NCBI GenBank assembly: GCA_021783855.1
Contig: JAJXTL010000084.1
Span: 1-11,900, forward strand
Length of the DNA stretch: 11,900 nt
Source of the DNA: Pseudomonadota bacterium
GTDB taxonomy: Bacteria; Pseudomonadota; Gammaproteobacteria; Burkholderiales; Gallionellaceae
Direction of reading: 5' to 3'
The translations under genes and the position numbers were made by a program. Below the pieces are notes generated by a model. It was not told the origin of the DNA and did no database searches. It saw nothing but the letters and a program-made list of their open reading frames with translations. Positions 3,142 through 10,996 of this stretch are shown here, one piece after another (positions within the stretch are counted from its first letter, which is position 1; every line of letters begins with the position of its first letter).

Positions 3142-3323
3142 TGTCATTCCCGCGAAAGAGGGAATCCAGCAGATCAAATTTCCGCGAAGCGGACAAGATT
3201 TCATTGAACAACAACTAGCCATCCGACCAAGCGCAGTGATACATGTACGAGGTCGCTGGTAATATTGCCCCGCTACGCGGGAGCTTTTAAATTAACTGGA
3301 TTCCGGCCTGCTCCGGAATGACA
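3142..3323. mobile_element. 182-bp MITE-like element between tmk and holB
   Basis: The ends are 28-bp inverted repeats, 3142-3169 (TGTCATTCCCGCG...) and 3296-3323 (...GGAATGACA), matching at 22 of 28 positions. Each end is itself a hairpin. Inside lies a second imperfect inverted pair, TCCGCGAAGCGG (3181-3192) with CCGCTACGCGGGA (3270-3282). In the centre is a module (3211-3263) beginning ACAACTAGCCAT and ending GTCGCTGGTAAT. The same module occurs in the insertion at 10534-10621. There is no coding capacity. TGTCATTCCCGC...-type ends are typical of small non-autonomous repeats scattered through proteobacterial genomes. I see no clear target duplication. The element ends 8 bp from the tmk stop, so tmk-holB read-through RNA would contain a highly folded leader. 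Confidence 0.8.
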
Positions 3324-3331
3324 AAATGACT

Positions 3332-3928
3332 TCAAACGAACGCAACAATTTCGGCCAACTGCTGCTGAACAGAAGCCAGCGTTTTCGCCGCATCGATCAC
3401 AACAAAACGCTGTGGATTTTCCGCCACGCGCCGGTGGTACCCGGCTCGCACCCGCTCAAAAAATTCGCCCTGCTCCTGCTCGAAACGATCCAGCGTTGCA
3501 TTGTTCGCCAGCCGCCGCCTGGCCACGTCGATCGGCACGTCGAAAAACAGCGTCAAATCAGGTACAAAACTCACCCACTGCTCAAGCTGCCTGAGCTTTT
3601 CCCAGTCCATACCACGACCCGCCCCCTGATAGGCGAAACTCGCGTCCGAAAAACGATCCGAAATCACCCACTTACCGGCACGCAAGGCTGGCTTGATGAC
3701 CTGCTCGACATGTTCGAGACGCGCCGCAAACATCAGCATCGCTTCCGTATCCATGCTCATGGACTGATTCAGCAGCATCTCGCGCAGCTGCTCGCCTAAC
3801 GGCGTGCCGCCCGGCTCCCGCGTGACGATCACATCCATGCCGCGAGCGCGTAGCGCATCGGCAAACCACGTCAGATGCGTGCTCTTCCCCGCCCCGTCCA
3901 CGCCTTCAAAAGTAATAAATTTGGTCAT
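3332..3928 (-). CDS. tmk: Thymidylate kinase
   Basis: This cytoplasmic enzyme phosphorylates dTMP to dTDP with ATP, an essential step of dTTP synthesis. The 198 residues match the family length. Visible motifs are the P-loop GVDGAGKST (9-17), TREPGGTPLGE (36-46), the DRF nucleotide-binding motif (91-93) followed by SFAYQGAGRG, and an arginine-rich lid region RRRLANNATLDRFE (137-150). The start gives the canonical beginning MTKFITFEG, although no strong ribosome site precedes it. tmk normally follows mltG directly; here an outer-membrane gene and a 69-bp inverted repeat come between. Transcription probably comes from mltG read-through or from an unrecognised promoter near 3930-4060. Confidence 0.96.
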   Translation of the reverse strand: MTKFITFEGVDGAGKSTHLTWFADALRARGMDVIVTREPGGTPLGEQLREMLLNQSMSMDTEAMLMFAARLEHVEQVIKPALRAGKWVISDRFSDASFAYQGAGRGMDWEKLRQLEQWVSFVPDLTLFFDVPIDVARRRLANNATLDRFEQEQGEFFERVRAGYHRRVAENPQRFVVIDAAKTLASVQQQLAEIVAFV

Positions 3929-3954
3929 TGAAAACAGTTGATAATTGATAATTC

Positions 3955-8335: not shown

Positions 8336-8375
8336 TTGAGACTCCACCCTGTTGTAAGTTTAAAAAGCGGATAGG

Positions 8376-8404
8376 ATTGTATCAAAGTTGCCGTAAATTC
8401 CCAA
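8376..8404 (-). promoter_or_regulatory. Promoter of the acpP-fabF run
   Basis: On the minus strand TTGGGA (8404-8399, four of six -35 bases), a 17-bp spacer and TACAAT (8381-8376, five of six -10 bases) lie about 40 bp upstream of the acpP start. This would let acpP and its downstream genes be expressed independently of the ABC permease gene. Confidence 0.65.
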
Positions 8405-8446
8405 CTACATCCGCAAATTGAAAAAATCCCCATCCGAATCAATCTA

Positions 8447-10996
8447 TTATTCGCCACGTAAAATGCTCATGGGCGACATCTTGCCTAATCTGCGCGTCTT
8501 TAACCAGCCTGCCAGCATCACCAGCACCATCCCGCCCAGCACACCATACAACCAAACCAGGCTGTCCGGGCGATAGGGAATCTCCAGCACATGGCGCGCC
8601 AACAACCATCCCAGCAACGCCGCAGCGGCCGCTGCGAACAGCCCGGAAAACAATCCTATCACGGCAAACTCGCCCGAATGCAAGCGGCGCAGATAGGCGC
8701 TGTCCGCTCCCAGCGTGCGCAGAATCGCGGCCTCTTGCACGCGCTCGTCCTGCGTGGCCAGCAAGGCCGCATACAGCACCACCATTCCGCAAAGCAAGGT
8801 GAACAGGAACACCACACTGACGGTTTGCGATATCTGATCCATGATGTCGCGCACCTGCGCGATCACCGCCCCCGTATCGATCAGCAGCAGGTTGGGAAAT
8901 TTGCGCACCAGCTCATCGCCGGCGCGCACTTTGTCGGGTGGCAGATAAAAGCTGCTAAGATAGCTTACCGGATAATTCTGCAATAATTCCGGCGTGGCGA
9001 TGACAAAAAAATTCACCCGCATCGAATCCCACTGAACTTTTCGCAGACTGGTGACGGGCGCCTTGAACCGGCTGCCGGCCACATCGAAAGCAAGGATGTC
9101 ACCAAGTTTGATATTGAGAGTTTTGGCGATGCCTTCCTCGACGGACAGCTCTCCCGCATTACTGCTCCACCATTTCCCGCTCACCAGCGTATTCCAGGCC
9201 GGCATCTTGTCAGAATAGGAAAGGTTGAACTCGCGCTCCACCAGCCCGCGCGCTCTGGGCTCGGGATAATCCGCACCGTTAATCGTATGGTCATTGATCG
9301 CCACCAGACGCCCTCTCACCATGGGCAACAGCTGCGGCGCCGGCAAATTTTGCCGTGCAAAAAAATCCTGCAACGACTGTTGCTGATCCGGCTGGATGCT
9401 CACCACAAAGCGATTGGGCGTATCCGGCGGCAGCTTGCCTTGCCAGCTTTGCAACAGATCACCGCGCACCAGCGTCAACACCAGCAAAGCCATGCCACCC
9501 AGACTGAGTGCTGTCACCTGTACCGCCACGCTGCGGCCGTGTCGCGTCAGATTGTTGAACGCATGCGCGATGACTCCGCCGACACTTCTGCTCATGAAGA
9601 TGGTCAGCGTTCGCAGCAACAACCACGCCAGCGCGCCCGACACCAGCAACCCTGCCAGCAAGCCACCCAGCACGGCGAAACCGAGCTTTAACGTACCCGC
9701 TTGCCAGAGGAACAGCAAAACCAGCACCAGCACAGCCGCACCATAGACCAGCCATCCGCCGGCTTCCGGCCGCCCCATTTCGCGACGCATCACTCTCAGC
9801 GGCGATACGCGGCGCAGCTGCAACAATGGAAGGTAGGCAAAACCGAACAACAGGGCAAAGCCGCTCACCGCAGCCTTGATCGCGGGCAACACGCCGGGTT
9901 GCGGCAGACTCGCATCAGGCATGATGCTGCTAACCAGTGCCGCCTGCGTGACGAAGGCTAACAACAAGCCTGCCAGCACAGCAACCAGTCCTGCCAGCAA
10001 AAACTGGTACAGGAACAGCCGCAACACCTGTCCCTGCTGCGCCCCCAGACAACGCATCACCGCAACGCCATCCAGATGGCGCGCCACATAGCGTCTGGCG
10101 GCAAGCAGAATCGCCACGCCGGCCAGAATGGCCGTAGAAAGGGCTGCCAGCCCCAGAAAATGTTCGGCGCGTTCAAGGGCTGTGCGAATTTCAGGGCGCG
10201 CATCCGTCACATCTTCCACCTTCTCGTTGTTGTTCAGCGGCAACGCCTTACGAAATGCCGCCACTTGTGCCGCGTACCCTGCAATCATCAAACGATAAGT
10301 GATGCGACTGCCCTCCTGCAGCAAGCCGGTAGCCGCCACATCGGCTTCGTTCATCATTACGCGCGGCGCAAAACCGGCAAAACCGATGGACTGACCCACA
10401 TCCTTCACGATGCGCGCGGCGACGATGAATTGCTGCGCGCCGATGCCCACTTTTTCACCCGCATGAAGATCAAAGTGACGCATCAGGCGCTCATCCACCC
10501 ACACCGTACCGTGACCCACCCCCCCATCAACGCTCCCTACTCCTCCGGGATAACCAGCGACTTGCCCGCTTGCGGGCTTAGTCGAATGGCTAGTTGTTTC
10601 ACCAGAGGGCCGGGGTGAGGGAACGCCCTTGCCATCGTCGATCTCGATTTTTCCGCGCAGCGGATAGCCCGCCTCCACCGACTGAATCTCGGACAGCATT
10701 ACTTGCCCCTGATGTGACACCATGCTGGGAAACGTGCGGCTCTCCACCACCCGCAAGCCGCGCTCGTGCGCCATTTTTCGATAATCGTCGGAGATCGGGC
10801 GCGTCGACGTAATGCGCAGATCGGCGCCCAGCAGACTGGCCGCCTGCTGTCCCAGCGCCTGACGCACCCGGTCGGCGAACAACCCGACGGTGGCGAGGCT
10901 GCCAACGGCCAGCACCAGCGCCAGCAACAACACGCGCCACTCCCCCGCCCGCCAGTCGCGGCGCAAAAGATTAAGGGACAGGCGAAGGAGGTTCAT
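8447..10996 (-). CDS. ybbP: FtsX-like ABC transporter permease, YbbP family, with an in-frame insertion
   Basis: This is a large inner-membrane permease of the MacB/FtsX type. In E. coli YbbP pairs with the ATPase YbbA and is linked to the esterase TesA; the substrate is not settled. The 849 residues show the usual order: TM1 (about 22-42), a large periplasmic domain, a first FtsX core of three helices (about 280-300, 328-350, 372-394), two central helices (about 415-431 and 438-461), another near 490-510, a second periplasmic domain, and a last three-helix FtsX core (about 740 to the end) finishing SPMSILRGE. Residues 126-156 (SPRPSGETTSH...GYPGGVGS region) are low in complexity and are encoded by the inserted element at 10534-10621. 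The reading frame is intact. No ATPase gene is adjacent in this window. No clear ribosome site precedes the ATG. Confidence 0.88.
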   Translation of the reverse strand: MNLLRLSLNLLRRDWRAGEWRVLLLALVLAVGSLATVGLFADRVRQALGQQAASLLGADLRITSTRPISDDYRKMAHERGLRVVESRTFPSMVSHQGQVMLSEIQSVEAGYPLRGKIEIDDGKGVPSPRPSGETTSHSTKPASGQVAGYPGGVGSVDGGVGHGTVWVDERLMRHFDLHAGEKVGIGAQQFIVAARIVKDVGQSIGFAGFAPRVMMNEADVAATGLLQEGSRITYRLMIAGYAAQVAAFRKALPLNNNEKVEDVTDARPEIRTALERAEHFLGLAALSTAILAGVAILLAARRYVARHLDGVAVMRCLGAQQGQVLRLFLYQFLLAGLVAVLAGLLLAFVTQAALVSSIMPDASLPQPGVLPAIKAAVSGFALLFGFAYLPLLQLRRVSPLRVMRREMGRPEAGGWLVYGAAVLVLVLLFLWQAGTLKLGFAVLGGLLAGLLVSGALAWLLLRTLTIFMSRSVGGVIAHAFNNLTRHGRSVAVQVTALSLGGMALLVLTLVRGDLLQSWQGKLPPDTPNRFVVSIQPDQQQSLQDFFARQNLPAPQLLPMVRGRLVAINDHTINGADYPEPRARGLVEREFNLSYSDKMPAWNTLVSGKWWSSNAGELSVEEGIAKTLNIKLGDILAFDVAGSRFKAPVTSLRKVQWDSMRVNFFVIATPELLQNYPVSYLSSFYLPPDKVRAGDELVRKFPNLLLIDTGAVIAQVRDIMDQISQTVSVVFLFTLLCGMVVLYAALLATQDERVQEAAILRTLGADSAYLRRLHSGEFAVIGLFSGLFAAAAAALLGWLLARHVLEIPYRPDSLVWLYGVLGGMVLVMLAGWLKTRRLGKMSPMSILRGE
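10534..10621 (-). mobile_element. 88-bp miniature element inserted in frame in the ybbP-like gene
   Basis: On the minus strand the element begins CCCTCACCCCGG (10621-10610) and ends GGAGTAGGGA (10543-10534). It is flanked by GCGTT on both sides (10626-10622 and 10533-10529), a likely 5-bp target duplication. Taking one base more into the element gives 89 bp with TCCCT/AGGGA ends and a 4-bp duplication. Element plus duplication is 93 bp, exactly 31 codons, so the host frame is preserved. The centre (10597-10550) is a hairpin with GCCCGC/GCGGGC at its heart, framed by ACAACTAGCCAT and GTCGCTGGTTAT. This central module matches that of the element at 3142-3323. Confidence 0.78.

What the first reader, a model, noticed from the sequence alone, without database searches (positions are those of the whole stretch)
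3211..10597. Same central module in two elements with different outer arms
The centre of the element between tmk and holB (3211-3263, plus strand) and that of the permease insertion (10597-10550, minus strand) share a left part starting ACAACTAGCCAT (20 of 22 positions) and a right part GTCGCTGGTWAT (11 of 12), around different inner loops. Their outer ends are unrelated: TGTCATTCCCGC in one, CCCTCACCCCGG in the other. A shared hairpin core inside different terminal repeats suggests either nested insertion of a core element into two kinds of repeat, or a modular family that swaps ends. I do not know a described family with this structure.
Basis: seen in the sequence. Interest (0 to 1): 0.75.

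Follow-up and report, generated by a model that had tools for sequence, protein, structure and literature searches.

The report
Tiny hairpin element nesting in repeats
A 54-60 base mobile DNA hairpin, common in the iron-oxidising bacteria of the family Gallionellaceae, has inserted into several unrelated families of other repeats, into genes without breaking the reading frame, and into copies of itself; the enzyme that moves it is unknown.

Summary
Observation and nested-insertion reading both hold. The core is a discrete 54-60 nt element: tail (T)GATGGAACWAC, then hairpin TAGCCA-TT-CGACT-AA-[variable tip]-AGTCG-C-TGGTTA. It is in 110 of 150 family genomes sampled; one genome gave 107 model matches in 1.16 Mb. 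It sits after pyrimidine-T at 112 of 117 sites; 101 of 117 share no base across the junction. Rejoined flanks exist uninterrupted elsewhere for 42 of 117 sites, against 2 for mispaired flanks and 11 for random positions. At the window's permease site, 51 orthologues carry neither, outer repeat only, or outer plus core (26, 20, 5), never core alone, and all keep the frame. Copies nest in each other at the tail/hairpin seam: 23 of 23 strict cases, about 26 of 29 loose ones. Stems covary. It resembles REP elements but lacks the GTAG or CGTC tag. No transposase family tested flanks or tracks it, and no consistent replication-strand bias was seen. Movement by an HUH-type single-strand enzyme is the likeliest guess, not shown.

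The parts
3206..3263 (+). Core element, copy A (diverged), between tmk and holB
   Evidence: Covariance model R1, 37.9 bits; left-part pattern
3142..3169 (+). Outer arm of element A, TGTCATTCCCGCGAAAGAGGGAATCCAG, like a CGTC-type REP (likeness judged by eye; family consensus recalled)
   Evidence: Inverted repeat I1 with 3296-3323, 79% complementary; arm-like matches without the core in 12 plasmid-collection records, Neisseria and Azospirillum among them
3296..3323 (-). Other outer arm of element A, CTGGATTCCGGCCTGCTCCGGAATGACA on the + strand
   Evidence: Inverted repeat I1; the related sequence CTGGATTCCGGCCT^GCGCCGGAATGACG is itself a target of the core in another genome (L069)
10550..10603 (-). 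Core element, copy B, 54 nt, in frame inside the permease gene
   Evidence: Covariance model R1, 69.6 bits; hairpin z -3.0
10604..10621 (-). Left half of the outer repeat split by copy B (CCCTCACCCCGGCCCTCT)
   Evidence: Sequence; the same kind of outer repeat stands without core in 20 of 51 anchored orthologues (kind scored by a loose pattern)
10531..10549 (-). Right half of the outer repeat split by copy B (CCCGGAGGAGTAGGGAGCG)
   Evidence: Sequence
8447..10996 (-). FtsX-like ABC permease gene, 849 codons, that carries outer repeat B and core B in frame
Evidence: ORF without stop; orthologues of its first 248 codons in 122 of 150 genomes of the family.

Best explanation
The shared core is a small non-autonomous mobile element of Gallionellaceae, of REP-like design: a 5' tail followed by one bulged hairpin with a variable tip. 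SHOWN: it is a discrete unit that has inserted, without target duplication, after a pyrimidine-T into several unrelated palindromic repeats, into genes, and into its own copies at the seam between tail and hairpin; its stems are conserved by compensating changes. In the window, copy A sits inside a CGTC-like repeat between tmk and holB, and copy B inside a CCCTC-type repeat that had itself entered the permease gene in frame. INFERRED: it moves as a folded single strand cut at Y-T, by an HUH-type enzyme (TnpA_REP or IS200-like) acting in trans, now often lost; I give that step about 35-40%. The confidence below is for the mobile, nested unit.
For: Unit and boundaries: 42 of 117 rejoined flanks have an empty site at <=2 mismatches/28 nt vs 2 of 117 mispaired and 11 of 117 random (some random controls are inflated because their region is held twice). 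Orthologous pair: L282 (empty) and L269 (filled) at the permease site. Allele series there: 26 neither, 20 outer only, 5 outer+core, 0 core only, of 51; all lengths equal mod 3. Target: CT 93 + TT 19 of 117; shared flank length 0 in 101 of 117. Self-nesting: of 227 complete copies, 23 have a second hairpin downstream and all 23 a second tail upstream; 6 of the other 204 have one; head-to-tail tandems 1. Structure: covariation score 0.172 vs 0.067 shuffled and 89.2% vs 82.3% paired cells, 0 of 500 each; 8 doubly changed pairs vs 5.1 (7 of 500). Abundance: 110 of 150 genomes, up to 75 exact copies, reversed-pattern control 1 hit in all. CT is the cleavage dinucleotide of studied TnpA_REP enzymes, and CTAG stands at the hairpin foot where REPs carry GTAG (passages of PMC8266576).
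Against: For the enzyme step: of 49 fetched Y1 transposase loci, 4 hold a model match within about 1.5 kb, none on both sides (L133, L139, L333, and L134 with a diverged second-type copy about 190 bases after the ORF); 5 matches in 148 kb is below the density in G006. Y1 presence is unrelated to the element (86 of 110 positive vs 31 of 40 negative genomes; Fisher p=1; five genomes with 15-45 copies lack Y1). No consistent replication-strand bias: 35:49 in G006; 13:15, 13:8 and 10:2 in three single-contig genomes; together 71:74. For the mobile-unit step: 27 of 117 sites have no near-empty site even at 6 mismatches; in the loose count 3 of about 29 hairpin pairs lack a second tail (by eye); one covariation measure (further pair types) does not exceed shuffles (137 of 500); copy A alone has no significant fold.
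Confidence: 0.88

Rival explanations
1. A modular repeat family that swaps its outer ends: core and arms belong to one element, and the ends are exchanged.
For: The variable hairpin tip changes between copies, and one copy (L064) seems to have recombined with an outer repeat through the shared tip CCCGCAAGCGGGC (by eye).
Against: Outer repeats stand alone with intact junctions, also at the orthologous permease site. The TTCGTCCTGAGC..GTCGAAGG repeat is entered at different points and in both orientations (L014, L097, L181, L182; by eye). Copies enter each other.
Confidence: 0.04
2. The core is mobile, but no dedicated transposase exists: host enzymes (Xer recombinases, or polymerase template switching at hairpins) copy it.
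For: None of four enzyme families tracks the element: Y1; reverse transcriptase 4/12 high-copy vs 6/12 zero-copy genomes; Y2 7/12 vs 8/12; IS110 7/12 vs 10/12. G034, with 45 copies, has no match to any of the four. No gene family recurs beside copies.
Against: Nearly all records named are metagenome bins and may lack genes; only four families were tried, three of them on 24 genomes that I picked. Exact ends and a Y-T target suggest an enzyme with sequence specificity.
Confidence: 0.25
3. A conserved structured RNA (regulatory element or ribozyme) rather than a mobile element.
For: Covariation, and a G.U pair that is invariant in 47 aligned copies.
Against: No Rfam family fits (one search gave 18 matches, all below their gathering scores); no recurring neighbour gene; presence/absence at orthologous sites; self-nesting.
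Confidence: 0.03
4. Chance similarity between two unrelated repeats.
For: None.
Confidence: 0.001

Closest known systems
REP elements (GTAG and CGTC super-families) and their RAYT/TnpA_REP transposases
   Same: Short bulged hairpin in high copy, a tag at the hairpin foot, CT at the junction, sometimes in frame in genes. REPs set within other palindromes are already described (A. variabilis GTAG-15, T. roseum GTAG-23, H. neapolitanus CGTC-1; section 7 of PMC3733652).
   Different: No GTAG or CGTC tag (CTAG, partly paired); a conserved 12-nt tail and exact ends; self-nesting at the tail/hairpin seam; several unrelated target repeats; no Y1 gene flanked on both sides.
IS200/IS605 family and its short derivatives
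   Same: No target duplication; insertion beside a short fixed sequence; end marked by a hairpin (family features partly recalled).
   Different: One hairpin instead of two ends; no gene inside; no consistent replication-strand bias.
Rickettsia palindromic elements (RPE)
   Same: Palindromic insertions in frame inside genes (PMC3733652 passages).
   Different: Most copies here lie outside long open frames (29 of 100 inside, vs 299 of 500 random positions); other host group; nested in other repeats.
MITEs
   Same: Short, non-autonomous, many copies.
   Different: No terminal inverted repeats in the usual sense and no target duplication.
Integron attC sites (recalled)
   Same: Single-strand hairpin with bulged bases and a variable terminal structure.
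   Different: No core-site motif as I recall it; no gene cassette; target differs.

Membership tests
GTAG REP / RAYT | Unpaired GTAG tag at the foot of the hairpin | tested here: not met
   CTAG in 46 of 47 aligned copies (which were collected by patterns holding TAGCCA), and its TAG pairs in TAGCCA/TGGTTA
GTAG REP / RAYT | Cognate RAYT gene flanked by the repeat | tested here: not met
   4 of 49 Y1 loci hold a model match within about 1.5 kb, none on both sides; no co-occurrence in 150 genomes
GTAG REP / RAYT | CT at the cleavage/insertion point | tested here: met
   CT 93, TT 19 of 117 left junctions; CT cleavage in passages of PMC8266576. The exact bond is ambiguous by one base
CGTC REP | Unpaired CGTC tag and CCA tail | tested here: not met
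   Neither is in alignment A1; the outer arm of element A fits better
MITE | Terminal inverted repeats with target-site duplication | tested here: not met
   101 of 117 sites share no flank base across the junction
IS200/IS605 | Lagging-strand insertion bias | tested here: inconclusive
   71:74 in all, p=0.87, but single genomes lean either way (G006 35:49, G062 10:2) and old copies may have lost the signal
IS200/IS605 | Single-strand cutting of the hairpin by a Y1 enzyme | not testable with these tools
   Needs biochemistry
Described Rfam RNA | Score over gathering threshold | tested here: not met
   Only four tRNAs in the window; nothing at E<=5 around copy B

The most novel reading that the evidence does not exclude
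A family of hairpin-only mobile elements multiplies to an estimated 250 copies in one genome with no dedicated transposase, uses its own copies as landing sites at a fixed seam so that arrays grow as (tail)n(hairpin)n, and comes in two tail types with the same hairpin but different targets (GATGGAACWAC at Y-T; GCTTTGCA mainly in the loop of the first type), so that the 5' tail may set the target and the second type preys on the first.
Probability: 0.3. Interest if true: 0.75.

Novelty: new variant of a known kind. Interest (0 to 1): 0.55.

Why it matters
Nested, self-targeting hairpins give a relative dating of repeat layers and a natural record of insertion sites (one clean junction per copy), which makes the open question of how REP-like elements without a known transposase spread directly testable. 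The permease series shows layered repeats entering a protein-coding gene while the frame is kept.

Tried and rejected
RAYT as partner: Y1 loci carry other repeats. By eye, one 172-aa Y1 gene (L132) is flanked by GTAGGGTGGATAAGC-type repeats, not by this element (the script read many minus-strand loci in the wrong strand, so only some of its proteins are usable). The pattern scan (20 loci) missed the diverged copy beside L134; the model scan (49 loci) found it. Strand bias: none consistent (one search uses copies at up to 2 mismatches, which may include chance hits). Reverse transcriptase, Y2 and IS110 families: no association (24 genomes picked by me, 12 high-copy and 12 zero-copy). Gene clusters beside copies: none with four or more loci within 600 bases among 1010 ORFs. 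Plasmids: no match to copy B; phages: only 27-base matches in 8 Streptomyces phage records, taken as chance. A guide-like pairing between tail and target was looked at by eye for both types and did not hold for all targets. A hammerhead-like reading of CTGATGGAAC was dropped (recalled motif; no stem II). One search misclassified the first group of loci because of loose anchors and was replaced.

Rows dropped: the 117 sites come from 138 scan hits (5 in the reversed control) after demanding <=3 mismatches, a recognisable tail, 60 bases of flank, no N and distinct flanks; window copy A was lost at the tail filter. Its own rejoined site has no match better than 7 of 31 mismatches. One search keeps only copies with a recognisable tail and a fully paired second stem; the looser one search gave 42 junction matches, 26 with two tails, 9 with one and 7 with none, of which by eye about 29 are true hairpin pairs (26 with two tails; L172, L213 and L224 without) and the rest outer repeats or coding sequence. 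The 51 permease orthologues are the window, the 30 best-scoring loci and 20 that I fetched because their match was split at the insertion, out of 122 genomes with a match; so the proportions are not a survey. One copy is counted twice because a piece border cuts it.
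Full report
WHAT IS THERE. The two cores are real and far beyond chance. By my count of the titles, 104 of 119 are labelled Gallionella, Gallionellaceae, Gallionellales, Sideroxydans, Sideroxyarcus, Ferrigenium or Nitrosomonadales; 15 bear other labels (Proteobacteria, Beta- or Gammaproteobacteria, one Hydrogenophilus). The window's permease is 86% identical over 248 residues to that of one held genome of this family, G070, so the window most likely comes from a member of Gallionellaceae (inference).

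ANATOMY. In 47 aligned copies the drawn pairing gives 89.2% paired cells against 82.3% in shuffles and a covariation score of 0.172 against 0.067, with 0 of 500 shuffles reaching either; 8 pairs have changes on both sides (mean 5.1; 7 of 500 reach 8); the number of further pair types is not unusual (18 vs 16.4; 137 of 500). Slid structures score at most 0.083. The structure was drawn from these copies, which favours it. Stem 2 changes as C-G to U-A, G-C to C-G and A-U to G-C; the tip varies most, and its pairs are partly out of register in short-tip copies. G14-U57 is G.U in all 47, so one strand folds better than the other. The TT/C bulge is usually T with C or C with T (by eye). The lengths of 109 of 117 copies are multiples of three, mostly 54 and 60.

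HOW COMMON. TAGCCATTCGACTARGC is in 110 of 150 genomes of the family, 1561 copies in all, median 9 in positives, maximum 75. A covariance model finds 107 matches in 1.16 Mb of G006, weak and partial ones included, one copy counted twice; extrapolated to 2.8 Mb that is about 250. It also sits in one viral contig, L001, inside a CCCTC-type repeat. A second viral hit (L002) has the left part only and may be chance.

NESTING. Rejoining the flanks of 117 copies gives sequences that exist uninterrupted elsewhere far more often than controls: at <=2 mismatches in 28 nt 42 vs 2 (mispaired flanks) vs 11 (random positions); at <=4, 68 vs 11 vs 24. Targets include CTCTCCCCAACCCT^CTCCCGCAGGCGGG, AAAACTGCGTCATT^CCCGCGCAGGCGGG, CTGGATTCCGGCCT^GCGCCGGAATGACG, TTCGTCCTGAGCCT^GTCGAAGGATGAAC and the element's own AACWACT^AGCC. 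The left junction ends in CT (93) or TT (19) of 117; 101 of 117 share no base across the junction. The cut is ambiguous by one base: CT^GAT...TTAT or C^TGAT...TTA. Rejoined targets fold somewhat better than random YT sites (mean -8.8 vs -7.1 kcal/mol), with extra pairing 8-16 bases to the right; repeated targets are not independent, so this is weak.

THE WINDOW'S OWN SITES. Orthologues of the permease start occur in 122 of 150 genomes. Of 51 that I anchored (window, 30 best-scoring, 20 chosen for a split match), the linker holds neither outer repeat nor core in 26 (the 20 chosen ones all have a plain 37-nt linker; of the other six, L270 and L271 carry another repeat, by eye), an outer CCCTC-type repeat alone in 20, outer plus core in 5 (window, L260, L261, L263, L269), and core alone in none; all 51 linkers have the same length modulo 3. 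L282 and L269 (the latter the same place as L006, Gallionella sp. nzgw563) are a near-identical pair without and with the core. Copy A lies in a composite of two CGTC-like palindromes; its exact empty site was not found, but similar inner sequences without core exist at 7-9 mismatches in 31.

SELF-NESTING. Of 227 complete copies, 23 are followed directly by a second hairpin, and all 23 have a second tail in front; 6 of the other 204 have a second tail (Fisher p 3e-26); a copy followed directly by a tail (simple tandem) was counted once. A looser scan gave about 26 of 29 (sorted by eye). Insertion of one copy at the tail/hairpin seam of another explains this; tandem duplication does not. Related arrays may share ancestry, so the p-value is a guide only.

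SECOND TYPE. 18 distinct copies have the same hairpin but a tail close to GCTTTGCA and end at TGGTTA; 12 of the 18 lie, by eye, inside the loop of a first-type copy, mostly between CAAAR and ACG. Here the 3' end is not ambiguous.

MECHANISM. No target duplication, a fixed Y-T left flank, a strand-asymmetric bulged hairpin and a CTAG at its foot point to HUH-type single-strand handling; studied TnpA_REP enzymes cut at CT (PMC8266576, passages). Against it: no Y1 gene flanked on both sides and few beside a copy (4 of 49 loci), no co-occurrence, no consistent strand bias. CGTC repeats are reported to lack a dedicated transposase too (PMC3733652, abstract and discussion passages). I therefore hold the HUH step at 35-40% and leave host-encoded movement open.

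NOVELTY. REPs set inside other palindromes are on record (PMC3733652 section 7), so nesting as such is not new. I found no description of this family, nor of seam-specific self-nesting, in the searches (open-licence PMC papers only; of the papers listed I saw passages of PMC3733652, PMC8266576 and PMC6006769, and section 7 of the first; the rest as listings). ISfinder was not available.

Noticed in passing
window 3955-4023: Inverted repeat CGTAGGGTGCATTTTATACACC / GGTGCATGAAATGCACCCTACG beside tmk, like a GTAG-tagged repeat pair.
   Followed up: no
L054, L113, L174, L177, L185: A further module close to GCCGAAGAACTTTTGGCCGGGCACCCGAAA sits in or beside the hairpin tip of copies in the genomes G005 and G006 (by eye).
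   Followed up: no
L009 about 4743-4926 of the - strand; L203 160 (+): Other repeats have inserted into the core element, so nesting runs both ways (by eye).
   Followed up: no
L270, L271: The same permease linker carries other repeats (GTAGGTCGGGTTA... type) in some genomes: a spot for in-frame repeat insertion (by eye).
   Followed up: partly
117 copies in L001-L121 and window: Lengths of 109 of 117 copies are multiples of three (54, 57, 60, one 51), although most copies are not in long open frames.
   Followed up: partly
L134 2398-2445: A diverged second-type copy lies about 190 bases after a Y1 transposase ORF.
   Followed up: partly
window 896-1304: Four tRNA genes; two of them lie in 80-nt copies 99% alike, 119 nt apart.
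   Followed up: no
window 11079-11671: Two small adjoining ORFs that look like a RelE/ParE-type toxin-antitoxin pair (by eye, from the ORF list).
   Followed up: no
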